A stretch of DNA of 64,000 nt from Streptomyces sp. P3 (GTDB taxonomy: Bacteria > Actinomycetota > Actinomycetes > Streptomycetales > Streptomycetaceae): assembly GCF_003032475.1 (NCBI RefSeq), contig NZ_CP028369.1, forward strand, positions 7,006,001 to 7,070,000, written 5' to 3'. The position numbers were made by a program, and so were the translations under genes. Positions 21,271 through 40,330 of this stretch are shown piece after piece. The notes under the pieces were generated by a model. That model was not told where the DNA came from. It did not search any database and saw only the letters and a program-made list of their open reading frames with translations. How positions within the stretch are numbered: position 1 is the first letter of the stretch; each line of letters begins with the position of its first letter.

Positions 21271-21272
21271 CC

Positions 21273-24266: not shown

Positions 24267-25325
24267 TCAGACGTCTTGGGACGGCCAGTCCAGCAGCCGC
24301 GCGCCGATCACCGCCGTCTGGAGCATGTAGCGGTGGGCGGGATCGGCTGGGTTGGCGCCGGTGAGTTTGTGGATGCGTTCCAGGCGGTAGGTCAGGGCGC
24401 GCACGCTGAGGGTGAGGCGGCGGGCGGCCTCGGCGGCGACGCAGCCGGAGTCGAAGTACGCGGTGAGCGTGTCCAGGAAGGGCTGGGCGCCGCCGCGGGC
24501 GGTGGTGAGCGGTCCCAGGGTGTCGGCGACGAGGTCGGCCATGGCTTGGCGGTCGCGGGTGAGGACGGGGTAGACCAGCAGGTCGGCGGCGCGCAGGACG
24601 GGGTCGTCGAGGTCGAGGCGCTCGGCGAGTTCCAGGGCGTTGAGAGCTTCCTCGTAGGACTGGACGACGCCTCCGGGGCCGGGTTGGGGCCGTCCGATGG
24701 CGACCCGGCCGCCGTCGGTGGCGGCGTGGGCCTGTTTGGCGAAGTGGGCGAGTACCTCGTCCTGGTGGCCGGGGGCGATGCACAGCAGCCGGCCGTCCTT
24801 GGTGGTGAGCAGGATGCTGCGGTCGCCGAAGCGGGAGATGAGCGCGCGTTCCACCTGCTGGGGCACCGGGTCGCCCTCGTCGTAGGCGGCGGGACCCTGT
24901 GCGACGGCGACGGCGTGCGCGTGGGACAGGCGCAGGCCGAAGCGTTCGGCGCGCTCGGCGAGGCGGCCGAGGTCGCTGCGGCCGTAGAGGAGGTCGTCGA
25001 TGAACTCGCGGCGGGCGGCCTCTTCCTGGCGTACGGCCAGGAGCTGGGCGCGTTCGTAGCCTTCGGCGAAGGCGTCGATGACCTGCTGCACGGCGGCAAG
25101 CGCGTCGTCGGCGGAGCCGGGTGAACCTGGCCAGGCCGTGCGGGCGCGGGTCAGATGCGCGCTGACGAGGGCGCGTAGCCCGTGGCCTGCCTCGGCGGCC
25201 TGCTCGCCCAGGGCGCGGCGGGAGGCGAGCTCGTCCCGGGTGAGGCGTCGCCCGGTGGCCGACACCTCGGTCAGGATCTCGGCGTAACCGTCCAGATACT
25301 GCTCGGGAAGTGCCCGGTCTGTCAT
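24267..25325 (-). CDS. PucR/CdaR-family transcriptional regulator
   Basis: The product is 352 residues. An N-terminal helical domain (RALVSAHLTRARTAWPG) is followed by a middle GGDEF-like CdaR domain (GRVAIGRPQPGPGGVVQSYEEALNALELAERL). The C-terminus has the characteristic PucR helix-turn-helix (LDTLTAYFDSGCVAAEAARRLTLSVRALTYRLERIHKLTG). Members are activators or repressors responding to small molecules. It is divergent from the flotillin/ATPase operon, and the shared 246-base gap holds the TGCCGG-N3-CCGGCA palindrome, making it the obvious candidate regulator. Confidence 0.9.
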   Translation of the reverse strand: MTDRALPEQYLDGYAEILTEVSATGRRLTRDELASRRALGEQAAEAGHGLRALVSAHLTRARTAWPGSPGSADDALAAVQQVIDAFAEGYERAQLLAVRQEEAARREFIDDLLYGRSDLGRLAERAERFGLRLSHAHAVAVAQGPAAYDEGDPVPQQVERALISRFGDRSILLTTKDGRLLCIAPGHQDEVLAHFAKQAHAATDGGRVAIGRPQPGPGGVVQSYEEALNALELAERLDLDDPVLRAADLLVYPVLTRDRQAMADLVADTLGPLTTARGGAQPFLDTLTAYFDSGCVAAEAARRLTLSVRALTYRLERIHKLTGANPADPAHRYMLQTAVIGARLLDWPSQDV

Positions 25326-25399
25326 GTGGTTCCCCCGGATTCTTGACGCGCCGGTGACGGCTTCTTAGCGGCCACCGGCATATAGACCCTAATGAACAC

Positions 25400-25414
25400 T
25401 GCCGGGAACCGGCA
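25400..25414. promoter_or_regulatory. Palindrome TGCCGG-GAA-CCGGCA, candidate operator
   Basis: A perfect 6-3-6 inverted repeat lies in the divergent gap between the PucR-type regulator and the flotillin operon. The same repeat, extended to ATTGCCGG-N3-CCGGCAAT, occurs at 37144-37162 above the second flotillin operon. Extra half sites (ACCGGCA) lie at 25374-25380 and near 25484. Confidence 0.6.
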
Positions 25415-25571
25415 ATGCGCGGCTGGGATCGGATCGTGCAGCATGGCTGTGGGGGAGCGCGGCGGACGGTTCCGGTGCCGGACACCGGCAGGTACCCGGC
25501 ACCGAGCCCGGAATGACCGTGCGCCGTCGGAGACGACTGATGTGCGCCGCGTGCGAGAGGGGGATCAGGCG

Positions 25572-26063
25572 ATGCGGACATTTCTGGTAGCGGCCACGGG
25601 CCTGCCCACGATCCTGCTGACCGCTGCGCTCGTCGTGGTCGTCTGTTTCTGGCTCCTGGCCGCCGTGGGCGTCGTCGGCGCCGACAGTTTCGACACGGAC
25701 GTGGACCTTCGGGCGTGGTGTATGGGCGGGGTGCCCGTGGCGGTCGCCTTCTCCGTGCTGACGGTGCTCGCCTGGTCCTTGAGCGTCGGCGCGACGGTTG
25801 TGGTCGCCGTGTCGGCGCCCCCGGGGCCTGTCACCGGGCTGCTGCGCATAGTCGTGCCCGGGGGAGCCCTGCTGGTCGCTTGGGCCACGACCTGCCTGAT
25901 CGTGCGGCCGTTGCACCGCCTCTTCCCGGATGAACCCGCGCCGTCCGTGCTGTGCGAGGCTCGCACGGGCGGCGGCACCGGGCCACGAGGTGCCGGGAGC
26001 CGCGATCCCCATGGGGGCGCGTCCCGTGTCGCCGTGCACCAGCCGCGGGACCGCGCCGCCTGA
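25572..26063 (+). CDS. Membrane protein at the head of the flotillin/ATPase operon
   Basis: The product is 163 residues with three membrane helices (about 8-34, 50-75 and 85-105) and a short Arg/Gly-rich tail. The ATG follows AGAGGGGGA; a longer frame from 25392 is rejected because its first 60 residues look non-coding and overlap the operator. It sits where YqiJ/NfeD-like partners usually precede flotillins, but no OB-fold is present. I infer a flotillin partner from context only. Confidence 0.65.
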   Translation: MRTFLVAATGLPTILLTAALVVVVCFWLLAAVGVVGADSFDTDVDLRAWCMGGVPVAVAFSVLTVLAWSLSVGATVVVAVSAPPGPVTGLLRIVVPGGALLVAWATTCLIVRPLHRLFPDEPAPSVLCEARTGGGTGPRGAGSRDPHGGASRVAVHQPRDRAA

Positions 26064-26139
26064 GCCCCGACACCGCCGGATCTCACCTCCGGCCTCTCTT
26101 CCTCACGCTCAACTCCCTTACGCCTCAAGGACGTATGCC

Positions 26140-28173
26140 ATGACTGCCGTGATCGTGGGCATCGGCGTGCTCGTCGCCGTCTGCCTGCTCGTCGTACTTG
26201 TCGTCTCCCAGCTGTTCCGCAAGGTGGAGCAGGGCAAGGCGCTGATCGTCTCCAAGCTGCGCAAGGTCGACGTGACCTTCACCGGGCAGGTCGTGCTGCC
26301 GGTGCTGCACAAGGCCGAGGTGATGGACATCTCGGTGAAGGCCATCGAGATCACCCGGGCCGGCAAGGACGGGCTGATCTGCCGGGACAACATCCGTGCC
26401 GACATCCGGATCTCGTTCTTCGTGAAGGTCAACAAGACCGTCGAGGACGTCGTCAAGGTCGCCCAAGCCGTCGGCACGGCGCGGGCGAGCGACCAGAGGA
26501 CGCTGCAGGAGCTGTTCCACGCGAAGTTCTCCGAGGCGCTGAAGACCGTTGGCAAGCAGCTGGACTTCACCGACCTGTACACCAAGCGCGAGGAGCTGCG
26601 GTACCGGATCATCGAGGTCATCGGCGTCGACCTCAACGGCTACCACCTGGAGGACGCGGCGATCGACTACCTGGAGCAGACGCCGCTGACCCAGCTCGAC
26701 CCGGCCAACGTCCTCGACGCCCAGGGCATCCGCAAGATCACCGAGCTGACAGCCGTGGAGCACGTGCGCACCAACGAGGCCCAGCGCACGGAGGAGAAGG
26801 AGATCACCCGGCAGAACGTCGACGCGCGCGAAGCGATCCTGGAGCTGGAGCGGCGCCAGGCCGACGCCGAGATCAAGCAGAAGCGGGAGATCGACACCGT
26901 ACGGGCCCGCGAAGAGGCCGAGACGGCGCGGGTCATGGAGGAGGAGCGGCTGCGTGCCCAGGGCGCGTTCCTCAAGACCGAAGAACAGCTCGGTATACAG
27001 CGGGAGAACCAGGCCCGTGAGGTCGCCGTCGCGGCGAAGAACCGCGAGCGGGTCATCGCCGTCGAGAACGAGCGCATCGAGAAGGACCGGCAGCTCGAGG
27101 TCATCGCGCGGGAGCGGGAGACGCAGCTGACGCAGATCGCCGCCGCCAAGGAGGTCGAGGCGGAGAAGCGGGAGATCGCCGAGGTCATCCGCGAGCGGGT
27201 CGCCGTGGACCGTACGGTCGCCGAGCAGGAGGAGGCCATCAAGAAGCTGCGGGCCGTGGAGGAGGCCGAGCGCGGCCGGCAAACCGTGATCATCGCCGCC
27301 GAGGCCGAGGCGCAGGAGAAGCTGGTCAAGGACATCAAGGCGGCCGAGGCCGCCGAGCATGCCGCCGTCCACCGCGCCGCCGAGGAACTCACCCTCGCCG
27401 AGGCCCGGTTGAAGAGCGCCGACCTCGACGCACAGGCCAAGCTGCGCCTCGCCGAGGGCATCCAGGCCGAGACCGCCGCCGAGGGCCTAGCGGCCGTCCA
27501 GGTCCGCGACAAGGAGGCCGAGGTCATCGAGAAGGCCGGCCGCGCGGAGGCGGAGGCGACCCAGGCCAGGCTGCGTGCCGAAGCCGACGGTGCGCGTGCC
27601 AAGGCGCTGGCCGAGGCCGAAGGCATCAGCGGGAAGCTGAAGGCCGAGGCCGCCGGTCTCACCGAGAAGGCGGCCGCGATGGCCGCCCTGGACGACGCCT
27701 CCCGCGGTCACGAGGAGTACCGGCTGCGCCTGGAGGCCGAGAAGGACATCCGCCTTGCCGGGCTGGATGTGCAGCGGCAGGTCGCCGAGGCACAGGCCAC
27801 GGTGCTGGCCACCGGGCTGGAGAACGCCGACATCAACATCGTCGGCGGGGACTCGGTCTTCTTCGACCGGCTGGTGTCCTCGATCGCGCTCGGCAAGGGT
27901 GTCGACGGCTTCGTCCAGCACTCCGAAACGGTCCAGGCGCTCGCCAAGCCCTGGCTGGACGGCACCTCCAGCTTCACCGACGACCTCAGCCGCGTCCTCG
28001 GCTCGGTCTCCACAGCAGACGTGCAGAACCTGACCGTCTCCGCCCTGCTGATGAAGCTCATGAACAACGGCGGCGCGAACGCCGGACAGTTCCGGCAGCT
28101 CCTGGACAAGGCCGGCGAGTTGGGCCTCGCCGAGACCTCGCTGACCGCTCTCAACGGCAACGTCAGGGCCTGA
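26140..28173 (+). CDS. Flotillin-like protein (SPFH/band 7, YqiK type)
   Basis: The product is 677 residues. One N-terminal membrane helix (TAVIVGIGVLVAVCLLVVLVVSQLF) is followed by an SPFH domain at about 30-200 (KALIVSKLRKVDVTFTGQVVLPVLHKAEVMDISVKAIEI). A very long charged coiled coil of Glu/Ala/Arg repeats spans about 215-560, and a globular tail follows (VGGDSVFFDRLVSSIALGKGVDGFV). Flotillins scaffold membrane microdomains by oligomerising. Start ATG at 26140 has AAGGA at 9 bases; a frame open upstream to 25930 is non-coding. It is separated from the giant ATPase gene by a long hairpin. Confidence 0.92.
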   Translation: MTAVIVGIGVLVAVCLLVVLVVSQLFRKVEQGKALIVSKLRKVDVTFTGQVVLPVLHKAEVMDISVKAIEITRAGKDGLICRDNIRADIRISFFVKVNKTVEDVVKVAQAVGTARASDQRTLQELFHAKFSEALKTVGKQLDFTDLYTKREELRYRIIEVIGVDLNGYHLEDAAIDYLEQTPLTQLDPANVLDAQGIRKITELTAVEHVRTNEAQRTEEKEITRQNVDAREAILELERRQADAEIKQKREIDTVRAREEAETARVMEEERLRAQGAFLKTEEQLGIQRENQAREVAVAAKNRERVIAVENERIEKDRQLEVIARERETQLTQIAAAKEVEAEKREIAEVIRERVAVDRTVAEQEEAIKKLRAVEEAERGRQTVIIAAEAEAQEKLVKDIKAAEAAEHAAVHRAAEELTLAEARLKSADLDAQAKLRLAEGIQAETAAEGLAAVQVRDKEAEVIEKAGRAEAEATQARLRAEADGARAKALAEAEGISGKLKAEAAGLTEKAAAMAALDDASRGHEEYRLRLEAEKDIRLAGLDVQRQVAEAQATVLATGLENADINIVGGDSVFFDRLVSSIALGKGVDGFVQHSETVQALAKPWLDGTSSFTDDLSRVLGSVSTADVQNLTVSALLMKLMNNGGANAGQFRQLLDKAGELGLAETSLTALNGNVRA

Positions 28174-28237
28174 CCCTCGCCGGGGCCTGACCGGCATGCC
28201 AGGACCCACGCTGCCGCCACGGCCCGACCCCCGGCCC

Positions 28238-28280
28238 GTGGTCCGGAGCTGCCGCACAGGGGACGGCAGCTCCGGACCAC
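28238..28280 (+). terminator. Perfect 17-bp hairpin between flotillin and ATPase genes
   Basis: GTGGTCCGGAGCTGCCG at 28238-28254 pairs without mismatch with 28264-28280 around a 9-base loop. It lies inside an apparent operon, 28 bases before the ATPase ATG. It may be a partial terminator that lowers ATPase expression relative to flotillin, or an mRNA-stabilising stem. Confidence 0.7.
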
Positions 28281-28307
28281 GTTTCTCCGACACCCGAGAG
28301 GGACCCC

Positions 28308-31300
28308 ATGACCACCGGGACCACCGGTCCGGACGCCGGCACGTACGAGGTGCTGCGCGACCGGCTCACCGCGCAGGCCGCCGAGCTCGCCCGCCGCGCC
28401 GAGGCGCTCAACGCCCGGCGGACCGAGGAGTTCGGCTCCACCCGGCTGGAGTTGACGAGCACCGAGCGGCTGCGCACCGAGCACACCTGCGTGCCCCGCG
28501 ACATCGTCTCCGTCGGCGACACGCTGCTCTTCGGCCACAACGTTTTCCTCGGGTTCCTCGGGCTCAAGCCGGAGACCACGGTGGGCGACGTCTTCGCGCT
28601 GTACGACCGCGACCTGAACCGCCTGCCCGAGGACGCCGTGCCGGGCCTGATCGACGACCCCGCCTTCGTCCGCGAGTTTGCCGCCCTCTACCGCTACTAC
28701 CGGCAGACCCACCTCCTGCAACTACGCCGTGTCGAAGGCAAGTTGCTGGCCGTCTTCCAGACCGGCGAGAAGGCCGGCGACATCCGCGTGCTGCGCTGGG
28801 CCCTTTCCGACGACGGCCGTGCGTCCTTCCTGGACGCGCGCGGCGAGCGCGACCACGTCTTCCCGCCTTCCCACGACTTCGCATGGACGCGGACGACCCG
28901 CGAGGACCACGTCCTCGGCCGCCACCCGCACGTCTCCATCGAGGGCGAGGTCTTCGTCGAGACCGTCGGCGGCACCTTGACCGTCAAGGTCGAGGACAAC
29001 ACCGAGACGGGCGAGGGGATGTACGCAGAGCCGGTCGCCGAGCCGCTGCAGTCCCTTGCCGACGCGGACATCGCGTACGCGCGCGTGGGCGCTCTCGTCC
29101 TGTTGGACGTCCTCCCTTACAAGGAGGACGTCCACCGCTACCTGGTCTTCAACACGCTCACGAAGAGCGTCGTCCGCCTCGATGGCATCGGCCGGGCGTG
29201 CCGTCGGCTGCCCGAGGACCAGGGCATCGTCTTCCCCGGCGGATACTGCCTGGCCACAGGCAGGTACAAGACGTTCGACGGGCTCGACACCGAGGAATTG
29301 GAATTCGAGCGAGTGGTCCGCTCACCCAACGGCGAGGACGTTCTCTTCGCCTTCCACGCGCGCGTGGAAGGCCGCAGTCTGCTGCTGCCCTACAACATGA
29401 TCCGCAAGGAGGTCGCCACCCCGCTGTCCTGCCACGGCTGGGCCCTCTTCGACGACGGCACGCTGGTGGCCCTGCGAGCAGACAGCGACGAACCGCAGCG
29501 CGTCCACCCCGTCCAGCTCTGGAACTCCCCGTTCGTCTCCGACACCCATACCGCCACCCAGCCGGTAGGGGCCGGCCCGCTCGCCCGTGTCGGCAACGCC
29601 GACCTCGTCCGCGGCATCTCCGACTGCCTGTCCATCACGCGCGCGGTCACCGAGACCACCCCGACGAGCGAGGTGTACGAGGCACTGGCCGCCGCCTGCG
29701 TCCGGGCCACGGATTCGTACCACTGGCTGAGCCATCCCGAGCTCGGAGATCTGCACGAGCCGCTCACCCAGGTGCGGACCACCGCCGAGCAGGTGCTGGC
29801 CGAGTTCGAAACCGTCCAGGCTCTCACCCGCCAGGCCGCCGACGCACTGGCCGAAGCCGCCGCACGGGTAGCGGCGGTCGTTCGACGCCTGCGCGGCGAG
29901 GCCCCGCGCAGCGCAGGCGCCTGGGTGACCGGCCTGACCGAGCTGCGCCACGCGCAGGGCCACCTGCTCACCCTCAAGGACACGCGGTACGCCGACGCCG
30001 CGCGCATCGACGAACTCGCCGCCGGCGCCGAGGCCGAACTCGCCTCCTTCGGGCAGCGGGCCGTCGCTCACCTCGCCCGCGAGGACGCCTTCGCCGGCCA
30101 CCAGGCCGACATCGAGCAGCTCGCCGCCGATGCCGAGGCGATCGCCACCGTCGCCGAAGCCGCGCCTGTCGCCGCCCGCCTCGGCGACCTCGCCGACGGA
30201 CTGCGCACCGTGACCGAGGTCGTCGCCGGGCTCGACATCGGCGACGCCACCGTCCGCACGTCCATCCTGGAGCGGATCGCCGAAGTCCTCGGCGACATCA
30301 ACCGCGCCCGAGCCACCCTCGACGGTTGCCGCCGCGCGCTTCTCGACCGTGAGGGGCGGGCCGAGTTCGCCGCCGAGTTCGCGCTGCTCGGCCAGGCCGT
30401 CATCGGCGCGCTCGCGGCTGCCGACAGCCCCGAGGGGTGCGACGAGCAACTCACCCGCATGCTGGTGCGGGTGGAGAACCTGGAGTCCAGGTTCTCCGAG
30501 TCCGACGACTTCCTCGGCGAGCTGGCGGACAAGCGCGACGAGGTCCACGGGGCGTTCTCCGCCCGTAAGCAGACCCTGGCCGACACCCGCGCCCGCCGCG
30601 CCGAGCGCGTGGCCGACTCGGCGAGGCGCGTCCTGCAGACGGTCGCCCGCCGCGCGGGCGCGCTCGCCGACGCGGACGCGATCGCCACGTACTTCACCTC
30701 CGACCCGACGGCCGCCAAGGTCCGCCGTCTCGCCGACGAGCTACGCGAACTCGGCGACCAGGTACGGGCGGAGGAACTGGACGGCCGGCTGAAGGCTGCC
30801 CGCCAGGAGGCGCTGCGCGCCCTGCGCGACCGCACCGACCTGTACGCCGACGACGGCCGCACCCTCCGCCTGGGCACTCACTGCTTCGCCGTCAACACCC
30901 AGCCACTCGATCTCACCCTCGTCCCGCACGGTGACACCCTCGCCTTCGCGCTCACCGGCACCGACTACCGCTCGCCGGTCACGGACCCCGACTTCGCCGC
31001 CACCCGGCTGTACTGGGACCGCCCGCTGCCGTCGGAGTCGCCGGAGGTCTACCGCGCCGAGCACCTCGCCGCCCGGCTGCTGGACGAACACGGCCCGACC
31101 GCGCTCGCGGAGGCCGACCTGTCCGCCGTCGTCCGGCAGGCGGCGGAGGCGGCATACGACGAGGGCTACCAGCGCGGCGTCCACGACCACGACGCGACCG
31201 CGATCCTCGCCGCACTTCTGCGCCTGCGCGAGGACGCCGGCCTGCTCCGCCACGAGCCCGCCGCCCGCGCCACCGCCCAGCTCTTCTGGGCGCACGGCAC

Positions 31301-33200
31301 GACCGCCGAGGAGCGCGAGAGCTGGACCCGGCGGGCGATGTCGTTGGCGCGCGCCCGGGACACGTTCGGGCCCGCGCCCGCCATCGACGACCTCGTGGCC
31401 GAATTGGCTGAGGCGATCGGCACACGAGCGGCGGCCGCCTACCTCTTCGAGGAGCTGACGAGCGGCCCCGACGGCTTCGTCATCAGCGCCGGCACCCGCA
31501 CGCTGCTCGACAAGTTCCGCCGCACGGTGGGCACATCGCCCTACGACGACGACCTCGCCGTCCTCCCCGACCCGGCCGCACGCAGGCAGCTGGTGGAGGC
31601 GTGGCTGACGTCGTACACCACCGCGACCGGCACGGAGATCACCCCTGGCGACCTGGCCGAGGCGGTGGCCGCCGAGCTCTGCCCGGACCTGCACCGCTAC
31701 GAGTCCGACGCACCACTGACCCAGTGCGTGGAGGGGCTGCTGGGCGCCCACCCGCGCATCAGCGGCCGTAGGCTCACGATCCGGGTGGACGAATTCCTCG
31801 CCCGCACAAGGGAGTTCCGCGCCCAAGACGTCCCCGCCCACCGCGCCTACCAGCGGCGCCGCGCGGCGTTGGTGACCGCCGAGCGCACCCGCCTCCGCCT
31901 GGACGAGTACCGGCCGACGGTGATGTCCGCGTTCGTGCGCAGCAAGCTGATCGACGAGGTGTACCTGCCGCTGGTCGGCGACAGCCTCGCCAAGCAACTG
32001 GGCACCACGGGCGAGTCCAAGCGCACCGACACCGGCGGCCTGCTCCTGCTCATCTCACCACCCGGCTACGGCAAGACGACCCTCATGGAGTACGTAGCCG
32101 ACCGCCTCGGCCTGATCCTGGTCAAGGTCAACGGACCCGCGCTCGGCCGTGCGGTGACCTCCCTCGACCCGGCCGAGGCTCCGAACGCCACCGCCCGCCA
32201 GGAGGTCGATAAGATCAACTTCGCGCTGGAGACAGGCAACAACACACTGCTGTACCTGGACGACATCCAGCACACCTCGCCCGAGCTGCTGCAGAAGTTC
32301 ATCCCGCTGTGCGACGCCACCCGCCGCATCGAGGGCGTCCGGGACGGCCAGCCGCGCACCTACGACCTGCGCGGCAAGCGCTTCGCCGTCTGCATGGCCG
32401 GCAACCCCTACACCGAGTACGGCAGCCGCTTCTGCGTCCCCGACATGCTCGCCAACCGCGCCGACGTCTGGAACCTCGGCGACGTCCTGACCGGCAAACA
32501 GGACGCCTTCGCGCTCAGCTTCATCGAGAACTCGCTCACCGCCAACCCCACCCTCGCCCCGCTCGCCGGTCGCGACCGCGCCGACCTCGACGTGCTCATC
32601 CGCCTGGCCGAGGGCGACGCGACGGCCCGCGCCGATCGGCCGGCCCACCCGTACGCCCCAGCTGAACTGGAGCGGATCCTGGCCGTACTGCGGCACCTGC
32701 TCGCGGCCCGCGAGACGGTCCTTGCGGTGAACGCCTCCTACATCGCCTCCGCCGGCCAGTCCGACGCCACCCGCTCCGAACCGCCCTTCCAGCTCCAGGG
32801 CTCCTACCGCAACATGAACAAGATCGCCCAGCGCATCCAGCCAGTCATGAACGGCACCGAGCTCGCCGCGCTGATCGACGACCACTACCGGGCCGAGGCC
32901 CAGACCCTCACCACCGGAGCCGAGGCCAACCTGCTGAAGCTGGCTGAGCTGCGCGGCACGCTCACCGACGAACAGACGCTGCGCTGGGTCGAGTTGAAGA
33001 CAGCGTATGTCCGCACCCAGACCCTGGGCGGACCGGACGACGACCCCCTCACCCGCGCGGTGGCCACCCTCGGCCTGCTCGCCGACCGGGTCGCGGCCGT
33101 CGAGTCGGCGATCAACCGCGCCGCCGATCCACGCCACCTGATCGCCGACCCCAGTGCCCGACACGCGGCCCGCCCCGACCCTGGCCACGGGGGGTACTGA
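28308..33200 (+). CDS. Giant AAA-type ATPase (family often annotated DNA repair ATPase)
   Basis: The product is 1630 residues. The N-terminal 480 residues are mixed alpha/beta with beta-rich repeats (HNVFLGFLGLKPETTVGDVFALYD; PYNMIRKEVATPLSCHGWALFDDG). Residues 480-850 form long Ala/Glu/Arg coiled coils. An AAA module lies near 1200-1500, with Walker A PPGYGKTT at 1251-1258, Walker B LLYLDD at 1314-1319 and the sensor-like VCMAGNPYTEYGSRF. It has no membrane helix. The family has no defined activity that I know of; the DNA-repair label comes from distant similarity. Placement after a flotillin and before a membrane protein suggests a membrane-tethered motor. Confidence 0.85.
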   Translation: MTTGTTGPDAGTYEVLRDRLTAQAAELARRAEALNARRTEEFGSTRLELTSTERLRTEHTCVPRDIVSVGDTLLFGHNVFLGFLGLKPETTVGDVFALYDRDLNRLPEDAVPGLIDDPAFVREFAALYRYYRQTHLLQLRRVEGKLLAVFQTGEKAGDIRVLRWALSDDGRASFLDARGERDHVFPPSHDFAWTRTTREDHVLGRHPHVSIEGEVFVETVGGTLTVKVEDNTETGEGMYAEPVAEPLQSLADADIAYARVGALVLLDVLPYKEDVHRYLVFNTLTKSVVRLDGIGRACRRLPEDQGIVFPGGYCLATGRYKTFDGLDTEELEFERVVRSPNGEDVLFAFHARVEGRSLLLPYNMIRKEVATPLSCHGWALFDDGTLVALRADSDEPQRVHPVQLWNSPFVSDTHTATQPVGAGPLARVGNADLVRGISDCLSITRAVTETTPTSEVYEALAAACVRATDSYHWLSHPELGDLHEPLTQVRTTAEQVLAEFETVQALTRQAADALAEAAARVAAVVRRLRGEAPRSAGAWVTGLTELRHAQGHLLTLKDTRYADAARIDELAAGAEAELASFGQRAVAHLAREDAFAGHQADIEQLAADAEAIATVAEAAPVAARLGDLADGLRTVTEVVAGLDIGDATVRTSILERIAEVLGDINRARATLDGCRRALLDREGRAEFAAEFALLGQAVIGALAAADSPEGCDEQLTRMLVRVENLESRFSESDDFLGELADKRDEVHGAFSARKQTLADTRARRAERVADSARRVLQTVARRAGALADADAIATYFTSDPTAAKVRRLADELRELGDQVRAEELDGRLKAARQEALRALRDRTDLYADDGRTLRLGTHCFAVNTQPLDLTLVPHGDTLAFALTGTDYRSPVTDPDFAATRLYWDRPLPSESPEVYRAEHLAARLLDEHGPTALAEADLSAVVRQAAEAAYDEGYQRGVHDHDATAILAALLRLREDAGLLRHEPAARATAQLFWAHGTTAEERESWTRRAMSLARARDTFGPAPAIDDLVAELAEAIGTRAAAAYLFEELTSGPDGFVISAGTRTLLDKFRRTVGTSPYDDDLAVLPDPAARRQLVEAWLTSYTTATGTEITPGDLAEAVAAELCPDLHRYESDAPLTQCVEGLLGAHPRISGRRLTIRVDEFLARTREFRAQDVPAHRAYQRRRAALVTAERTRLRLDEYRPTVMSAFVRSKLIDEVYLPLVGDSLAKQLGTTGESKRTDTGGLLLLISPPGYGKTTLMEYVADRLGLILVKVNGPALGRAVTSLDPAEAPNATARQEVDKINFALETGNNTLLYLDDIQHTSPELLQKFIPLCDATRRIEGVRDGQPRTYDLRGKRFAVCMAGNPYTEYGSRFCVPDMLANRADVWNLGDVLTGKQDAFALSFIENSLTANPTLAPLAGRDRADLDVLIRLAEGDATARADRPAHPYAPAELERILAVLRHLLAARETVLAVNASYIASAGQSDATRSEPPFQLQGSYRNMNKIAQRIQPVMNGTELAALIDDHYRAEAQTLTTGAEANLLKLAELRGTLTDEQTLRWVELKTAYVRTQTLGGPDDDPLTRAVATLGLLADRVAAVESAINRAADPRHLIADPSARHAARPDPGHGGY

Positions 33201-33201
33201 G

Positions 33202-33795
33202 GTGCCGCGCATCCGTCCGGCACCGCTGCCTCGGGAACTGCCCGACGCGGGCACGGCCCGCCGCCGGGCGCGTGCGGGCACGGGCCTGGTCGTGGCGCTG
33301 CTCGTGCTGCCCTTCGCCGTCGGTGGCATGGTCCGGTCGGGCGCGGCGGTGGGGCTCGTGACTGGTCCGGTGGCCTTCCTGCTGTGGGTCGAGCTGTGCG
33401 CGGAACGCGCGCCGACGCGCTGCTCGTCGGCCAGAATGACCGCGCGGACCCTGACCGGCATACGGTCCGTCGACCTGCGCCGCATCGCGAGTGTCCGGCT
33501 GCGGACGACGTTCTCGTACGGCACTGTCCACCGGGCCCTGCTTGTCCGCGACGCACATGGGGTGCGGCTCGGCGTTACCTCCACAGCCGGGCGGCGCGCG
33601 CTGCGGCGGGCGCTCGAACGGCAGCCGGGGGTCGTCATGGGACGCCGTCCCAGGGTGAGCCGGGCGGCACGGGTCTGCCTCGGGACCGGGCGCCCTGGCC
33701 AACTCGCCGTCCACACCGTGCTCGTGTTCCTCGCACAGGTGGGGCTCGTCTGCGCGTATGTCGTGGCGCTGGTGGAGGCCGGCGGGATCGGCTGA
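33202..33795 (+). CDS. PH-like membrane protein, last gene of the flotillin/ATPase operon
   Basis: The product is 197 residues from the GTG at 33202, one base past the ATPase stop and just after a GGGGGG ribosome site. Two membrane helices (about 25-45 and 47-65) are followed by a soluble beta-rich part (ARTLTGIRSVDLRRIASVRLRTTFSYGTVHRALLVRDAHGVRLGV) with the look of a bacterial PH domain. A last helix lies at about 168-190. Such proteins often anchor to membranes. Tight spacing links it to the ATPase. No catalytic residues are seen. Confidence 0.7.
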   Translation: MPRIRPAPLPRELPDAGTARRRARAGTGLVVALLVLPFAVGGMVRSGAAVGLVTGPVAFLLWVELCAERAPTRCSSARMTARTLTGIRSVDLRRIASVRLRTTFSYGTVHRALLVRDAHGVRLGVTSTAGRRALRRALERQPGVVMGRRPRVSRAARVCLGTGRPGQLAVHTVLVFLAQVGLVCAYVVALVEAGGIG

Positions 33796-33858
33796 CCCGA
33801 CGGCCCAAGACCGCCCTGTCACTGAGCAGCCGGCACACGCGCGAGTTTCACAGCGCGG

Positions 33859-34359
33859 TCACGTGGTGCTCAACGCTCCCGCAGCGCCCAGCAGTTCGTG
33901 CAGGAGGTGCGAGGCCGTGATCACGCCCAGCAAGCGGATACTGCCTGGTTCCCGGCCGCCCGGTCCGGCTTTGACCTTCTCGGCGACCGCCACCAGCGGG
34001 CTGCGTACCTGCGCCATCAGCGCGGCCACCTCCAGCGCTGTGTCGTCCGGGTCGGCGATCGGCGGCGGGGCCGCCTTGCTGGACAGGCAGTCCCCGACAC
34101 GGCGGCCGGCCAGTGCCTGGCAGAGCCGGTCGGCGTGCTTTTCGTCGACGACGGCGGCGAGGGCCGGGTCTTCGACGACGTAGGCGGGCACCAGCACTTT
34201 GATCATCTGGGAGGCCGGCAGGATCGCCTTCGGCTCGCCCCGCTCGTCGAGCACCAGCAGGCCCGGCAGTCTGTGCTCGGCCATCAGCCGGGCAGCGTCC
34301 ATGGCGTCGCTGTCGACGCTCACCGTTTCGTATTCGACCGCCAGGTCACGAGCGCGCAC
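33859..34359 (-). CDS. Tandem CBS-domain protein
   Basis: The product is 166 residues made of two CBS domains: VRARDLAVEYETVSVDSDAMDAARLMAEHRLPGLLVLDERGEPKAILPASQM and VGDCLSSKAAPPPIADPDDTALEVAALMAQVRSPLVAVAEK...LLGVITASHLLHELLG. CBS pairs bind adenine nucleotides and often gate transporters. GTG at 34359 follows GAGGAG at ideal spacing; the longer frame above it is rejected. A broken paralogue lies at 38705-39108 between two ion transporters, suggesting that this copy may serve the same transport system. Confidence 0.85.
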   Translation of the reverse strand: MRARDLAVEYETVSVDSDAMDAARLMAEHRLPGLLVLDERGEPKAILPASQMIKVLVPAYVVEDPALAAVVDEKHADRLCQALAGRRVGDCLSSKAAPPPIADPDDTALEVAALMAQVRSPLVAVAEKVKAGPGGREPGSIRLLGVITASHLLHELLGAAGALSTT

Positions 34360-34556
34360 GGCGGGCTCCTCTTCCACTGGAAATGTTCCTGTGCCCAGCG
34401 TCGTACGGTTTCGGGGCGCGGGCCAGGTCATTGACGCGGAACATACGCAGCGGCCCTGTTCGAACACGCATCACTCCGCTCTGGTCACCAACCGTGGTCC
34501 GACTGGTTCCGGGTGGCCGAGGTCCTGGCGTCCATTTCGCCGGGCTGCACCCGAGC

Positions 34557-34913
34557 TCACCATGGTGGCCCGCCGCTGCCGGGGGCCTCCTCGGCTGCCT
34601 GAGACCGCACACTCCGCCGGTAGAACCGCTCACTGAGCTGTGATCCGCCGATGAGTCCAGCGGCGAACATCAGCGCGCCAACCTCCATCGTCGAGCCGAA
34701 AAACGTGGCGTCCTCGGTGTCCAGGCCGCTCCACCGCAGCATGGGAACCACCAGACCGCCGATCCAGATCACCAGCAGCGCCACCCCTCGCACGCGGATG
34801 CCCCACGGGCTCGTACGACGTCGTACTCGCGCGGGTGCCCAGCCTCGCAACGAGGCGATCGCCAGAGGGAGGGCGAATGCCGACCAACCGATCAGCCACA
34901 GCCAGGGGAACAA
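34557..34913 (-). CDS. Small membrane protein of unknown function
   Basis: The product is 118 residues with three hydrophobic helices (MFPWLWLIGWSAFALPLAIASLRGW, GVALLVIWIGGLVVPML, and VGALMFAAGLIGG) and a hydrophilic tail. No family is recognised. It lies between the CBS gene and the terminator of the second flotillin operon, so it is probably expressed on its own or with the CBS gene. Confidence 0.65.
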   Translation of the reverse strand: MFPWLWLIGWSAFALPLAIASLRGWAPARVRRRTSPWGIRVRGVALLVIWIGGLVVPMLRWSGLDTEDATFFGSTMEVGALMFAAGLIGGSQLSERFYRRSVRSQAAEEAPGSGGPPW

Positions 34914-34994
34914 GGTTCACGCTCCATATCCGGGTGCCGCCCAGCGGCCGAAGGCTTTGCGGCGGCTACCGCCGACGGCAGGCGCCGGCGCGAG

Positions 34995-35032
34995 GGCGCG
35001 CCCGGGCGGTTCCAGGACCGTCCGGGCGCGCC
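34995..35032 (-). terminator. 16-bp hairpin ending the second flotillin operon
   Basis: GGCGCGCCCGGGCGGT at 34995-35010 pairs with ACCGTCCGGGCGCGCC at 35017-35032 with one G-T pair and a 6-base loop. It lies 21 bases beyond the flotillin stop. Confidence 0.8.
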
Positions 35033-35052
35033 GCGCCACCGGGTGTCCGACG

Positions 35053-36486
35053 TCAGCCGGTGACCTCGATCTTTCCGTTGGCTTCGGCGGGAGCCGTGGT
35101 CGCGGCCTGTGTCCCACCGGTCCGCCGGGTCATGCCCTTCAGCAGGTCGGCGAGGTCGACTCCGGTGGTGGAGCTGAGAAGTTCGACGCCCTGGGCGACG
35201 TTGTCGGTGACGGTCCGCGACAGCCGGCTCGCGCCGTCCGTCGATATCACCGTCATCTTGTCGATGGCGCTGAGCGGCTCGGACGCCTTGGCGACGACCT
35301 GGGGCAGGACCTCGACGAGCATCTGGAGCACGGCCGCGTCGCCGTACCGCGCGAACGCGTCGGCCTTCCTGTGCATGGCCTCGGCCTCGGCGGCGCCCTT
35401 CGCGCCGATCGCGGCGGCCTCGGCCTCACCCTCGATGCGGACCGCGTCGGCGAGCGCGGCGCGGTGTGCCTTCTCGCCCTCACCGGTCAGCCGGGAGCGC
35501 TGGGCGTCCGCCTCGGCCTGCTTGACCAGGGCGATGCGGCGGGCCTCGGCCTCCTGCTCGGCCTGGTAGCGGGCGGCGTCGGCGGGCTTGCGGACCTTGG
35601 TGTCCAGTTCGCGGTCGGTCAGCGCGGCCTGCCGCTCGGCGACCTTCTCCTGCTCGGCGAGCACCTCCTGGCGGCGGGCGGCCTCGGCCAGCGGGCCGGC
35701 GGCTGCGGCTCGGGCAGCGGCCTCGTCGGTCTCGGCCTTGATCTCCGCCTGCTTCAGCGCGAACGTCCGCTGCGCGATCGCGATCTCCTCCTCGGCCTTC
35801 AGCCGGGCCTGCTCGGCGGCCCGCCGGGCCACCGCCTCGGCGATGTCGGCCTCCTGCTTGGCGCGCGCGGCCTCGGGACGGCCGAGGTCCTCCAGATAGG
35901 AGCCCTCGGTGCTGATGTCCTGGATCTGGAAGGCGTCCAGCACCAGGCCCTGCCCGGACAGACTCGCCTCGGCCTCCTCCGCGACCTGCCCCGCGAAGGC
36001 GGCGCGGTCGCGAATGATGTCCTCCACCGACATCCGGCCGACGATGGCGCGCAGCGCGCCGGAGAGCACCTCCTGGGTGAACCCGACGATGCCGTCCTGC
36101 TGCATCAGGAACCGCTGGGCGGCGGCACGGATGGAGTCCTCACTGCCGCCGACCTTGACGATGGCGACGCCTTCCAGGTGCGCCTTGACACCGCGCAAGG
36201 TGACCGCGCCGCGCACCGCCACCGGGATGTGCCGCGAGGACAGGTCGAGGGTGAACTTCTGCTGCACGAACGGCACGACGAACACGCCGCCACCGACCAC
36301 GACCTTCTGGCCGCTGTTGTCCGTGAAGACCCGGCCGGTCTCCGGATCGGTGGCCTTCTTGCCGCGCCGCCCGGTGACGATGAACGCCTCACTGGGACCG
36401 GCCACCTTGTAACGCGTGACCACGACCAGAGCCAGCAGGACCAGGAGTATGACGACTCCCACGACCGCGACGAGGACAGGACTCAT
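35053..36486 (-). CDS. Flotillin-like protein (FloT/YuaG type)
   Basis: The product is 477 residues. An N-terminal membrane helix (SPVLVAVVGVVILLVLLALVVV) is followed by the SPFH domain (SEAFIVTGRRGKKATDPETGRVFTDNSGQKVVVGGGVFVVPFVQQKFTLDLSSRHIPV). A coiled coil rich in EAEA/RQAE repeats spans about 200-370, with a flotillin C-terminus (VLQMLVEVLPQVVAKASEPLSAIDKMTVIS). It fits the canonical bacterial flotillin length. The partner NfeD gene is 77 bases upstream, the usual NfeD-FloT order. It points toward the flotillin/ATPase operon, and both operons share an operator-like palindrome. Confidence 0.93.
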   Translation of the reverse strand: MSPVLVAVVGVVILLVLLALVVVTRYKVAGPSEAFIVTGRRGKKATDPETGRVFTDNSGQKVVVGGGVFVVPFVQQKFTLDLSSRHIPVAVRGAVTLRGVKAHLEGVAIVKVGGSEDSIRAAAQRFLMQQDGIVGFTQEVLSGALRAIVGRMSVEDIIRDRAAFAGQVAEEAEASLSGQGLVLDAFQIQDISTEGSYLEDLGRPEAARAKQEADIAEAVARRAAEQARLKAEEEIAIAQRTFALKQAEIKAETDEAAARAAAAGPLAEAARRQEVLAEQEKVAERQAALTDRELDTKVRKPADAARYQAEQEAEARRIALVKQAEADAQRSRLTGEGEKAHRAALADAVRIEGEAEAAAIGAKGAAEAEAMHRKADAFARYGDAAVLQMLVEVLPQVVAKASEPLSAIDKMTVISTDGASRLSRTVTDNVAQGVELLSSTTGVDLADLLKGMTRRTGGTQAATTAPAEANGKIEVTG

Positions 36487-36563
36487 GACAATGCCCCTCT
36501 TGGAAACCCAGCCCCCTGAGTGCGGGGCGGAACGAAAAACAACAACGACGAACGGACGAAGGC

Positions 36564-37079
36564 TCAGCGGTCGACCGGGCGTACCGCCAGGGAGGTGGCC
36601 GACAGGGCTTCCTCGACCCACACCTCGGTACCGCGCTCGACGGGGCCGACGCTCTTCGCGGCGTACTTGACCGGCTGGCCCGCCAGATACACCAGCACCT
36701 CGCCGTAGCCGTCGGCCGGGATCGGCGTGACCACGGAGCCGGAACTGCCCAGCAGGTCCGTGCCGCGCGGGGTGGCGCCGGGCTCGTCCCGCATCAGGGC
36801 CCGGCTGAGGCGCCAGGTCAGCCAGCCCGCCCCGGTTCCCGCGCCCGCCCCCGCGACGGCCGCGGCGCCGGCCCCGAGGCCCGTGGTGCCGAGCACGATC
36901 GCCCCGCCGAACCCGAGCATCGAGACGAACCCGGCGATCACCGGCAGCGACAGCAGCCCGTCGAACAGACCCTCCAGCGCGCCGACGCCGTCGAAGAGCC
37001 CTTCCAGGACACCGTCGAAGACGAGCGCGAACACCAGCAGGACGAGACCTGCGATGCCGAGACCCAGAAACAGCGTCAC
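36564..37079 (-). CDS. NfeD-like membrane protein
   Basis: The product is 171 residues. An N-terminal hydrophobic part with three helices ([68 protein letters not shown]) precedes a C-terminal OB-fold (LLGSSGSVVTPIPADGYGEVLVYLAGQPVKYAAKSVGPVERGTEVWVEEAL). This is the short NfeD1b architecture that pairs with flotillins. It should help organise flotillin assemblies in the membrane. It heads the second flotillin operon, with the palindrome 65 bases upstream. Confidence 0.85.
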   Translation of the reverse strand: MTLFLGLGIAGLVLLVFALVFDGVLEGLFDGVGALEGLFDGLLSLPVIAGFVSMLGFGGAIVLGTTGLGAGAAAVAGAGAGTGAGWLTWRLSRALMRDEPGATPRGTDLLGSSGSVVTPIPADGYGEVLVYLAGQPVKYAAKSVGPVERGTEVWVEEALSATSLAVRPVDR

Positions 37080-37143
37080 GGAACTTCACCTCCCCGCTGT
37101 CGTCCACGCCACGTGGATGGTCTCACGTGCGACTACGGCGGTC

Positions 37144-37162
37144 ATTGCCGGATTCCGGCAAT
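37144..37162. promoter_or_regulatory. Palindrome ATTGCCGG-ATT-CCGGCAAT, candidate operator
   Basis: An 8-3-8 perfect inverted repeat lies 65 bases above the NfeD start. Its central 15 bases match the 25400-25414 palindrome apart from the spacer. Two such sites in front of two flotillin operons strongly suggest one shared regulator. Confidence 0.65.
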
Positions 37163-37397
37163 CTTTACGCGCCTTTTATGCCTGACCCAAGCGTCTACGG
37201 ACCGCGTCCGAAGCAGCGGCCGCCGGCTGAGGAGCCGGGCGGGCCCTGGTGGGCCGTGGAGAGCACCACACGGTCCTGGGGCGCGGAAGGACCTGGCGAT
37301 GGTGCGCACTTCGCAGCCGTCCGCTCCGGACGGTCTCCTTGCCCGCGCGGTACGACGAGGGTGAACCGCTCCCGGTATGCAGTCCGTCACCTCCGGA

Positions 37398-38704: not shown

Positions 38705-39108
38705 GATGAGTCGTTCCGTCGGGCGGGCGGCCGTCACGGCGCCTGCCGGCCAGGTTCGGCCGCCGTCGTGTTCGACGACGGTGACCAGTGGGGTGTGCGT
38801 GCGGGCCATGAGAGCCGCGATGCACATGATGCTCGCGTCCGGTCCGACCGTCGGCCGGCGGAACCCGCGACGCGGGAGCCTCCCCAGGCTCTCAACTTCT
38901 CCCCCCAGTGGCTCACGGGCCTGGGAGGTGCCCCCGGAGCAGGGGGGATCCCCGTCGCGACCGTGGGCACGACGGCGTACGGCTGGTCGTCCCGGTCGAC
39001 GGCCGGCAGTGACGGCAGCTTGTGCTCCCGGGCAGCAGCGCCGCGTCGGTGGCGTCGTCGTCGGGTGGACACGTACGGGTAGGACTCGGCGAGTTCATGC
39101 GCCGACAT
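38705..39108 (-). pseudogene. Broken CBS-domain gene
   Basis: The start MSAHELAESYPYVS, then DDDATDAALL in another frame, then EHKLPSLPAVDRDDQPYAVVPT back in the first frame trace a CBS domain like that at 33859-34359. The second domain survives only as DASIMCIAALMARTHTPLVTVVEHDGG in a third frame near 38830-38755. A palindromic repeat at 38876-38950 interrupts the region between them. Its start overlaps the antiporter 3' end by 14 bases, so the intact gene was coupled to it. Confidence 0.7.
38876..38950. repeat. Palindromic intergenic-type repeat inside the CBS pseudogene
   Basis: CCTCCCCAGG near 38880 pairs imperfectly with CCTGGGAGG near 38922, and the flanks are runs such as GTGCCCCCGGAGCAGGGGGGA. 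Short C/G-run palindromes like this are frequent between Streptomyces genes. Here the repeat is inside former coding sequence, consistent with an insertion that broke the gene. Confidence 0.45.
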
Positions 39109-40330
39109 GGCCGGCCTCCTTGGTCGTACGGGCGGACTCGTCGCCGCCGGGTACGCCGGCGAGGTCCTCGACGTCGAAGAGGCGGGCGATCGGAACGTCG
39201 GTGGAGCTGTGCGCGATGATCGAGAAGGCGATGCACACGGCGATGAGCGTGAACGCCTCCTCGCCCTGCGGGATCCCGGCTTGCAGCACCAGCAGCCCGT
39301 ACACGACCGACGCGAAGCCCTTCGGCCCGAACCAGGCCGCGACCAGCTTCTCCCGCCGGTCGAATCGCGTGCCCAGCAGCGAGAGCAGCAGAGAAGCCGG
39401 GCGGATCAGCACGATGGCCAGGACCACGGCGACGTAGCCGCCGAAGGACAGGTCCCCGAATAGCTGAGGAGTCAGCAGCGCGCCGAACACCAGCAGCGCC
39501 GCGAACTTCGCCAGCTCCGCCAGCGCTTCGCCGAGTGGTTCGAACGCCTCCTTCGCCTCCGGTGAGCGCGCGGTGAGCACCGCGCCCGCCGAGAACGCGG
39601 CCAGGTAGGGGTTGGCGTGCGTCAGGTGGCACGTCGCGTAGAGGATCACGCCGATCGCCAGCGGCAGCAGCGGTTGCAGCTTGGGCTCGGCGCCCAGCAG
39701 CCGGAACCGGACGAGCTCGATCACCACGAACGGCAGGACGACACCGAACGCCAGCCCGAGGACCAGCTCGAGCGCGATCTTCCCCAGCGACGCCTCGGCG
39801 TGCCCGGAGGTCGGCCCGGCCGCGGCGATCAGGATGAGCACGACCGGCAGAGCGAGCCCGTCGTTGATGCCGCTCTCCACATTCAGCAACTGCCGCAGCT
39901 TCGCCGGGACTTCCTTGCGACCGACGATCGCCGAGGCGAACACCGGGTCGGTCGGCGCCAGCACGGCGCCGACCAGGAACGAGGTCGTCCAGTCCAGGCC
40001 CACCAGGTAGTGCGTGATCAGCGCCATGCCGACGAACGCGAGCGGCATGCCGAGTCCGAGGGCGCGGGCCGGGTTGCGCCAGTTGGCGCGCAGCTTGGGG
40101 AAGGAGACGTGCATGCCGTCGGTGATGAGCACCGCGAACAGCGCCAGATCGGCTGTGACGGACACGATCTCACTGTCGGGCGTGATGTGGATCAGCCCGA
40201 GGAAACCGTCGCTGACGAGCGCGCCGCCAACCAGGAAGAGAAAGGAGGTGGACAGCACGGTCCGTGCGGCCAGACCTGACAGCAGCACCGCGATGAGCAG
40301 TGCTGCTCCGAACACCACGACGAGCACCAT
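39095..40330 (-). CDS. Cation/proton antiporter (CPA family)
   Basis: The product is 411 residues with 11-12 membrane helices. The motif GAVLAPTDPVFASAIVGRKEVP holds the TDP pair of CPA1 exchangers. LLNVESGINDGLALPVVLI carries the ESGxND signature, in which the Asp takes part in ion and proton exchange. It probably swaps Na+ or K+ for H+ across the cytoplasmic membrane. The C-terminus is short and lacks a regulatory TrkA domain; the neighbouring CBS gene may have supplied regulation before it decayed. Confidence 0.9.
   Translation of the reverse strand: MVLVVVFGAALLIAVLLSGLAARTVLSTSFLFLVGGALVSDGFLGLIHITPDSEIVSVTADLALFAVLITDGMHVSFPKLRANWRNPARALGLGMPLAFVGMALITHYLVGLDWTTSFLVGAVLAPTDPVFASAIVGRKEVPAKLRQLLNVESGINDGLALPVVLILIAAAGPTSGHAEASLGKIALELVLGLAFGVVLPFVVIELVRFRLLGAEPKLQPLLPLAIGVILYATCHLTHANPYLAAFSAGAVLTARSPEAKEAFEPLGEALAELAKFAALLVFGALLTPQLFGDLSFGGYVAVVLAIVLIRPASLLLSLLGTRFDRREKLVAAWFGPKGFASVVYGLLVLQAGIPQGEEAFTLIAVCIAFSIIAHSSTDVPIARLFDVEDLAGVPGGDESARTTKEAGHVGA

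What the first reader, a model, noticed from the sequence alone, without database searches (positions are those of the whole stretch)
24267..37162. Two flotillin operons around a 1630-residue AAA ATPase: a candidate undescribed membrane system
A PucR-type regulator, membrane protein, flotillin with a very long coiled coil, giant ATPase (Walker A 1251-1258, Walker B 1314-1319) and PH-like membrane protein face a second cluster of NfeD and canonical flotillin. The ATPase family is known only by a vague DNA-repair label. Its fixed company of microdomain scaffolds suggests a membrane-tethered motor for envelope repair, stress or defence. This is inference from context.
Basis: partly seen in the sequence, partly recalled or inferred. 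Interest (0 to 1): 0.85.

Follow-up and report, generated by a model that had tools for sequence, protein, structure and literature searches.

The report
Flotillin-paired motor with antiporter regulon
In Streptomyces a giant ATP-driven motor is encoded next to its own membrane-scaffold protein, a pairing already noted in other bacteria, and here a shared DNA switch sequence appears to tie it to a second scaffold operon and to a sodium/proton pump, which makes its unknown job directly testable.

Summary
The genes are real. The core is not two flotillin operons but one pair: a YqiK-type flotillin (26140-28173) and the 1630-residue DUF3686 AAA+ ATPase (28308-33200). Of 150 Streptomyces genomes the same 82 carry both; 82 of 84 ATPase copies lie directly downstream of the flotillin, two on broken contigs. 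The pair recurs in three other phyla. It is not undescribed: Ravi et al. 2024 reported this operon by gene context, and searches show that DUF3686 is their ATPase. My searches found no functional study.

New here: (1) in Streptomyces the YqiJ partner erodes; the window's copy lacks its OB-fold tail. (2) A palindrome, TGCCGG-N3-CCGGCA, lies twice between PucR and this operon and once before the NfeD-like/FloT operon. In 81 loci there are 115 exact copies (1.3 expected), 112 of them before PucR/flotillin-ATPase, one Na+/H+ exchanger family or NfeD-like/FloT. PucR orthologues and palindrome go together in the 17 genomes tested. This predicts a PucR regulon for ion or membrane stress. A flotillin-scaffolded AAA+ remodeller of membrane proteins is the likeliest mechanism, inferred. 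Defence and DNA repair are not supported.

The parts
24267..25325 (-). PucR-type transcription regulator (GGDEF_2 + HTH_30), candidate binder of the palindrome
   Evidence: relatives in 54 of 81 loci; orthologue in all 13 Streptomyces genomes asked, none at E<=1e-40 in the 4 other actinobacteria asked
25400..25414 (.). palindrome copy 1, TGCCGG-N3-CCGGCA
25476..25490 (.). palindrome copy 2, 76 bp further on
25572..26063 (+). YqiJ-family membrane protein (163 aa, 3 hydrophobic segments) lacking the OB-fold tail
26140..28173 (+). YqiK-type flotillin: N-terminal hydrophobic segment, Band_7 domain, proline-free stretch 215-560 (taken as coiled coil)
28308..33200 (+). DUF3686 giant AAA+ ATPase, 1630 aa: N-terminal helix, propeller-like beta domain about 48-406, long helices 430-798, AAA+ about 1240-1510, C-terminal helices
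35053..36486 (-). canonical FloT-like flotillin
36564..37079 (-). NfeD-like membrane protein (no Pfam support)
37146..37160 (.). palindrome copy 3, centred 74 nt before the NfeD-like gene
39095..40330 (-). Na+/H+ exchanger (PF00999) whose orthologues mostly carry the palindrome 142-149 nt upstream; the window's own site has 2 mismatches

Best explanation
The locus encodes a membrane-protein remodelling machine. Step 1 (inferred): the YqiK-type flotillin is anchored by its N-terminal segment and oligomerises on the cytoplasmic side into a ring or cage, as solved SPFH proteins do. Step 2 (inferred): the giant ATPase docks on it through its propeller and coiled coils and uses its AAA+ ring to unfold, extract or assemble client membrane proteins; PspA and CesT/Tir proteins join in some versions in other phyla, and YqiJ, where present, is an accessory that many Streptomyces have lost in part or whole. 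Step 3 (sequence pattern shown, regulation inferred): in Streptomyces a PucR-type regulator binds the palindrome TGCCGG-N3-CCGGCA and co-regulates this operon, itself, one Na+/H+ exchanger family and, in some lineages, a second NfeD-like/FloT operon. Likely purpose: keeping ion-transporting or stressed membrane proteins working under ionic, pH or membrane stress.
For: Pairing: the same 82 of 150 genomes, 82 of 84 ATPase copies adjacent; 76 of 80 loci, 3 of the 4 misses being cut contigs; 11 of 11 fetched plasmid-collection records from four phyla. Conserved catalytic residues. AAA+ nearest RuvB, NorQ/CbbQ and ClpX/A-type domains in fold search, RuvB/NVL/Rix7/Cdc48 by profile, with a predicted hairpin between the Walker B strand and sensor 1. 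Mostly propeller-type hits for the N-terminus. PspA and CesT/Tir-type neighbours in Pseudomonas pQBR103 and Hymenobacter, as published. SPFH cages holding AAA+ proteases are described in the text of PMC11260169 shown. Regulon: 115 exact sites against 1.3 expected, 112 in three leaders; first of all half-sites in the loci; PucR 45 of 60, exchanger 13 of 17, NfeD-like 1 of 5 exact (all 5 within 2 mismatches), seven other neighbour families 0 of 109 exact, 3 of 109 within 1 mismatch; PucR orthologues in 13 of 13 Streptomyces and 0 of 4 other actinobacteria; 7 of 12 PucR genes away from the flotillin operon still carry an exact site.
Against: No interaction, localisation, ATPase activity or DNA binding was measured. 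Fold matches are class-level only (query-normalised TM-scores about 0.1-0.2; C-terminal model pLDDT 76.1, pTM 0.44). No client is known. The window's own exchanger has a degenerate site (2 mismatches). 4 of 12 unlinked PucR genes, and a further one split in two pieces, lack a site within 2 mismatches. One locus (L057) has the ATPase without the flotillin. None of the four non-Streptomyces actinobacterial loci has the palindrome within 1 mismatch, so the ion link looks lineage-specific. Exchanger proximity was noticed post hoc, and related loci are not independent samples.
Confidence: 0.55

Rival explanations
1. It is a PspA-partnered ESCRT-like membrane repair system; the Streptomyces version simply uses the chromosomal PspA elsewhere.
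For: PspA and CesT/Tir or YjfI genes lie in the same cluster in Pseudomonas pQBR103 and Hymenobacter; Ravi et al. suggest that abbreviated operons may act with PspA encoded elsewhere; the window genome has one PspA at 4.07 Mb.
Against: No PspA match within the held flanks in 9 of 11 plasmid-collection loci; in the window genome it is about 3 Mb away.
Confidence: 0.2
2. It is an ATP-driven DNA-repair or chromosome protein, as the database name says, and the flotillin link is incidental.
For: Pfam label 'ATPase involved in DNA repair'; nearest AAA+ structures include RuvB.
Against: No DNA-binding domain found; the RuvB profile hits cover 45 positions or fewer of the P-loop region; flotillin-positive and ATPase-positive sets are the same 82 of 150 genomes.
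Confidence: 0.05
3. It is an anti-phage or conflict system.
For: Patchy presence (82 of 150 Streptomyces; 3 of 245 actinobacterial genera) and carriage in 12 plasmid-collection records; Mads-type genes among sampled neighbours.
Against: Only weak AAA-domain PADLOC hits in the operon; 4 member-hits in 119 of 925 neighbours; no match in 50,697 phage records; the commonest neighbour families are PucR, exchangers and TrkA.
Confidence: 0.08
4. The palindrome is bound by some other regulator and PucR is a passenger in the same regulon.
For: Binding was not tested; 4 of 12 unlinked PucR genes lack the site.
Against: Sites before PucR itself in many places and matching genome-level presence.
Confidence: 0.25

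Closest known systems
Band-7/flotillin - propeller AAA+ ATPase - YqiJ/YuaF operons of Ravi et al. 2024 (PMC11237479; section 19 and passages seen)
   Same: Same flotillin architecture, same ATPase (coiled coil, propeller, AAA+), same YqiJ partner; DUF3686 shown to be that ATPase by the gene orders.
   Different: Here no PspA/CesT in the operon, YqiJ without OB tail, a PucR-type regulator, and a palindrome linking a Na+/H+ exchanger and a second flotillin operon.
E. coli yqiJ-yqiK
   Same: YqiK 29% identical over 437 aa; YqiJ family by hhalign (probability 92.9, E 3.8e-7); same gene order.
   Different: No ATPase gene beside it in K-12, and DUF3686 rings in 0 of 14 control genomes.
HflK/HflC-FtsH (SPFH cage with AAA+ protease)
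   Same: SPFH scaffold paired with a AAA+ protein.
   Different: No peptidase domain found in the DUF3686 protein; its AAA+ core is nearest RuvB/NorQ/Clp types.
S. aureus FloA-NfeD (PMC11222466, abstract and outline seen)
   Same: Bacterial flotillin with NfeD partner, holding unfolded proteins.
   Different: Described as ATP-independent; no giant ATPase is mentioned in the abstract.

Membership tests
[quoted passage not shown]
   Hydrophobic segment 4-22 and proline-free 215-560, Band_7, YqiK similarity; the C-terminal Pfam Flot domain was not detected in this protein
[quoted passage not shown]
   the propeller call rests on a model without a close structural match
Ravi 2024 flotillin-AAA+ operon | YqiJ/YuaF membrane protein | tested here: met
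   Family met but the OB-fold tail is missing in the window
Ravi 2024 flotillin-AAA+ operon | CesT/Tir-PspA dyad (full version only) | tested here: not met
   The only PspA match in the genome is at 4.07 Mb
PF12458 DUF3686 | score above curated cut-off over the full profile | tested here: met
   689.9 bits, cut-off 25, positions 1-448 of 448
Active AAA+ ATPase | Walker A, Walker B, sensor 1, sensor 2 residues | tested here: met
   Residues invariant in 16 aligned sequences; motif names from general knowledge; activity itself not testable
HflKC-FtsH type SPFH protease complex | protease domain on the AAA+ protein | tested here: not met
   No peptidase family
DNA-repair protein | DNA-binding or nuclease domain | tested here: not met
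   None
Known anti-phage defence system | PADLOC model match in the operon proteins | tested here: not met
   Only IetA AAA-domain hits, best E 0.0031
PucR-type regulator | GGDEF-like plus PucR C-terminal HTH | tested here: met
   PF17853 and PF13556 above cut-offs
PucR regulon | PucR binds the palindrome | not testable with these tools
   Inferred from site position and co-occurrence

The most novel reading that the evidence does not exclude
Streptomyces run a PucR-controlled membrane regulon, marked by TGCCGG-N3-CCGGCA, in which an energy-driven flotillin cage (YqiK-type SPFH plus DUF3686 AAA+) is made together with a Na+/H+ exchanger and a second flotillin, and remodels or stabilises such transporters under ionic or pH stress: an ATP-powered flotillin, whereas the one bacterial flotillin mechanism that I saw described (S. 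aureus FloA-NfeD, PMC11222466) is ATP-independent.
Probability: 0.3. Interest if true: 0.78.

Novelty: new variant of a known kind. Interest (0 to 1): 0.62.

Why it matters
DUF3686 proteins occur in at least four phyla, carry a DNA-repair name that nothing here supports and, in the library searched, no paper uses the family name. Within Streptomyces the gene is found only with its flotillin in 150 genomes, and an operator ties the pair to a Na+/H+ exchanger and a second flotillin operon. That turns a context guess into two simple tests: does PucR bind the site, and do salt, pH or membrane-stress phenotypes appear when the pair is deleted. If so, bacterial flotillins would gain an ATP-driven partner.

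Tried and rejected
Two-flotillin core: rejected as a fixed arrangement (FloT cluster in 5 of 81 loci), kept as a regulatory link. Defence. DNA repair. A sigma-70 scan of 25200-34600 found no promoter-like site, and terminator-like sites at chance level (3 against 2.2). A profile of the YqiJ-like proteins found no convincing solved structure (best E 0.029) and hardly any Pfam match (1 of 16 members to NfeD, E 0.0024); the name rests on hhalign with E. coli YqiJ, the DUF1449 annotation of the Hymenobacter gene and position. Is truncated YqiJ a pseudogene? In 12 pairs that I picked among 21 loci, dN/dS was 0.22-0.42 in the 7 pairs of the window's close clade (flotillin 0.12-0.18 in the same pairs) and 0.39-0.70 in 4 other pairs, one pair not scorable: relaxed, not plainly neutral. 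Palindrome elsewhere in the genome: 15 exact copies against 5 for the reversed pattern; 9 of the 12 outside this locus lie inside predicted genes, none of the other 3 was pursued. Papers: searches for DUF3686; flotillin with 'DNA repair ATPase'; YqiJ/YqiK; flotillin with Streptomyces; pQBR103 with flotillin; flotillin/AAA+/propeller/PspA; 'DNA repair ATPase' with SPFH; PucR with Streptomyces, flotillin, antiporter (listings) showed only Ravi et al. as describing this operon. Passages of PMC13086221, PMC2636767, PMC10936438 and PMC9239133 did not describe the ATPase.
Full report
What is there. The window lies at 7006001-7070000 of a 9.85 Mb single-contig genome whose nearest relatives in the searches are Streptomyces. 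From 24 to 40 kb it holds: a PucR-type regulator on the minus strand; divergent from it, a small membrane protein, a long flotillin, a 1630-residue ATPase and a further membrane protein on the plus strand; then, on the minus strand, a CBS protein, a FloT-like flotillin with an NfeD-like protein, a CitMHS/ArsB-type transporter and a Na+/H+ exchanger. Gaps inside the plus-strand operon are 76, 134 and 1 bp. The long flotillin most likely begins at 26140, where homologues begin, not at the 25930 of the ORF list.

The ATPase. It matches PF12458 (DUF3686) over the whole profile, PF25472 and AAA. An alignment of 16 sequences from four phyla (40-75% identical to the window's) keeps Walker A SPPGYGKT (1250-1257), Walker B with D1318/D1319, N1366, R1384 and R1501 invariant; calling the last three sensor 1, arginine finger and sensor 2 is from general knowledge. 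AlphaFold2 of residues 1-800 (pLDDT 86.9, pTM 0.57) gives an N-terminal helix, a beta domain 48-406 and long helices to 798; the fold matches are mostly WD40, clathrin terminal-domain and other propellers (my reading of the titles), with query TM-scores of 0.18 or less. Residues 700-1630 (pLDDT 76.1, pTM 0.44) hold a AAA+ core with a beta hairpin between the Walker B strand and sensor 1; nearest are RuvB, NorQ and CbbQ, ClpX/ClpA, and by profile RuvB, NVL, Rix7, Cdc48 at E 0.001 to 0.093. No DNA-binding, nuclease or peptidase domain was found. So it looks like a protein remodeller rather than a repair enzyme.

The pair. In the best 80 of 311 relatives found (76 Streptomyces, 4 other actinobacteria, so a sample of close kin) the flotillin lies upstream on the same strand in 76; L047, L051 and L076 are cut contigs, and L057 has lost it. 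As a broader test I searched 150 Streptomyces genomes with each protein: 82 have the flotillin (E <= 1e-60) and the same 82 have DUF3686 above cut-off; one more, G490, has a 30-residue fragment below cut-off. Both calls drew the same handles as far as they list them (48 and 47 negatives are not listed). Of 84 ATPase copies, 82 have the flotillin on the same contig and strand with 148-638 bp between match ends; the other two lie on different contigs of draft genomes. In 396 Actinomycetota genomes DUF3686 occurs in 16, in 3 of 245 genera; 17 of the 18 further loci from that search (L086-L103) carry the flotillin next to it, the eighteenth being the second piece of one gene. Twelve plasmid-collection records carry the ATPase; all 11 that I fetched have the flotillin directly upstream, and 10 of 11 a YqiJ-like gene before it. 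No phage record matched.

Known or not. Ravi et al. 2024 (PMC11237479; section 19 read; [quoted passage not shown] In Hymenobacter the order is Tir chaperone, PspA, DUF1449, a long 'hypothetical protein' (the flotillin), 'DNA repair ATPase'; in plasmid pQBR103 YjfI, PspA, rhomboid, DUF2491, DUF350, DUF1190, glutathionylspermidine synthase, a YqiJ-like protein, SPFH, 'DNA repair ATPase'. The DUF3686 protein is therefore, by gene order, Ravi's ATPase. The term DUF3686 occurs in no paper of the library; I found no functional study (listings).

YqiJ erosion. The upstream membrane gene family matches E. coli YqiJ (hhalign probability 92.9, E 3.8e-7) and the flotillin matches YqiK (29% over 437 aa). 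With separate profiles for the membrane part and the OB tail, 81 loci fall into 35 with both, 26 with the membrane part only (the window among them), 13 with neither, 4 without flotillin and 3 at contig edges. The profiles were built from 15 OB-bearing rows, which match by construction; L083 is a marginal call (E 0.00012). The nine non-Streptomyces plasmid-collection loci all have both (8 of them... counted with the rows used for the profiles). On a FastTree tree of the ATPase the three states need at least 9 changes against a shuffled mean of 34.9. In the window's close relatives the remaining part is under weaker purifying selection than the flotillin.

The palindrome. TGCCGG-N3-CCGGCA occurs exactly three times in the window: 25400 and 25476, in the 246-bp PucR/YqiJ divergent region, and 37146, before the NfeD-like/FloT operon; within one mismatch there are five matches against a mean of 1.0 in 100 shuffles, 2 of which reach five. 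In 81 loci (1,855,028 bases) there are 115 exact copies, 1.3 expected from base composition; 97 lie in the flotillin/PucR leader, 5 in leaders shared with the exchanger, 9 before the exchanger, 1 before NfeD-like/FloT, 3 elsewhere. Of 74 loci with enough upstream sequence, 59 have an exact site before the flotillin operon, the 11 other Streptomyces have one with a single mismatch, and the four non-Streptomyces have none within one mismatch. Among all 6-mer half-sites with a 3-base gap it ranks first by copies and by loci; the next has 31 copies, and the median of the 60 permutations of the half-site is 1. The loci are related, so copies are not independent. Counting genes with 300 nt upstream held: PucR 45 of 60 exact, 52 within one mismatch; Na+/H+ exchanger family a 13 of 17 exact (12 of these at 142-149 nt, one at 25 nt before a partial match) and 15 within one mismatch; NfeD-like 1 of 5 exact (the window), 3 within one and 5 within two mismatches, at 74-83 nt; CitMHS 0 of 13, the other exchanger family 0 of 15, TrkA_N 0 of 28, NhaA 0 of 10, TrkA_C 0 of 15, CBS 0 of 15, USP 0 of 13 exact, with 1 CitMHS and 2 TrkA_N genes within one mismatch. 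The window's own exchanger has a two-mismatch remnant.

PucR as the likely binder. I asked 17 genomes: 13 Streptomyces, chosen because no full PucR gene lay in the locus, all have a PucR orthologue of 70-95% identity; the four other actinobacteria, which lack the palindrome before their operon, have none at E <= 1e-40. Of 12 PucR orthologues (70% identity or more) that lie away from the flotillin operon, 7 carry an exact site 69-175 nt before their own start, one has a single mismatch and 4 have none within two. Left out of the 12: L153 (beside the operon of L012, exact sites), L154 and L166 (short contigs, place unclear, exact sites), L168/L171 (two pieces of one split gene, no site), L169 and L170 (45-53% identity, no exact site). 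Three of the seven stand divergent to the exchanger and four have neither exchanger nor flotillin in the held stretch. Binding by PucR remains inference.

Ion genes nearby. 42 of 81 loci, or 33 of 62 with full flanks, hold a Na+/H+ exchanger, NhaA, CitMHS or TrkA-type gene, in many different orders; on the tree this needs at least 12 changes. The window genome holds 6 PF00999, 12 TrkA_N and 5 CitMHS matches, which would put about 0.06 in a stretch of this size (my estimate; NhaA and TrkA_C not included). The families were picked after seeing the census, so this is weaker than the palindrome.

Mechanism. SPFH proteins form membrane-attached cages, and HflK/C cages hold AAA+ proteases (PMC11260169, abstract and introduction as shown). 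S. aureus FloA-NfeD is reported to hold unfolded proteins without ATP (PMC11222466, abstract and outline). The most economical reading is a flotillin scaffold with a dedicated AAA+ remodeller. Docking, client and energy use are inferred; the regulon is supported by sequence pattern; nothing was tested at the bench.

Noticed in passing
window 20521-22385: Response regulator (20521-21270) and histidine kinase (21114-22385) pair, Pfam-confirmed, with a large overlap of the predicted frames.
   Followed up: no
window 23560-24159: DM13 electron-transfer domain protein with one hydrophobic segment beside PucR; relatives in 6 of 81 loci.
   Followed up: no
window 22580-23113: Relative of a TerD-family protein (Pfam on the L006 member); relatives in 5 of 81 loci near the operon.
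   Followed up: no
window 36978-37598, minus strand: Weak CitMHS match in a frame with three stops, overlapping the NfeD-like gene and the start of the intact transporter; possibly a decayed piece.
   Followed up: no
L057 8701-10010: The flotillin gene is missing; a truncated YqiJ with a repetitive tail runs straight up to the ATPase, the only clear loss among 77 informative loci.
   Followed up: partly
L009 and L012: Two copies of the operon on one contig of Streptomyces sp. IBSBF 2953; G123 and G172 also carry two copies.
   Followed up: no
L106, L114: Two plasmid-collection records (4.09 Mb Proteus mirabilis, 11.85 Mb Nonomuraea) look by size like whole chromosomes labelled as plasmids.
   Followed up: no
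81 loci: A second palindrome half-site, GTCGGC-N3-GCCGAC, occurs once in each of 31 loci; cause not examined.
   Followed up: no
G490:C1:1258034-1258123: A 30-residue sub-threshold DUF3686 fragment in a genome without the pair, possibly a remnant or chance.
   Followed up: no
neighbours of the operon in relatives: Four PADLOC member-hits (mad1, mad2, mad3) in 119 sampled neighbour proteins.
   Followed up: no
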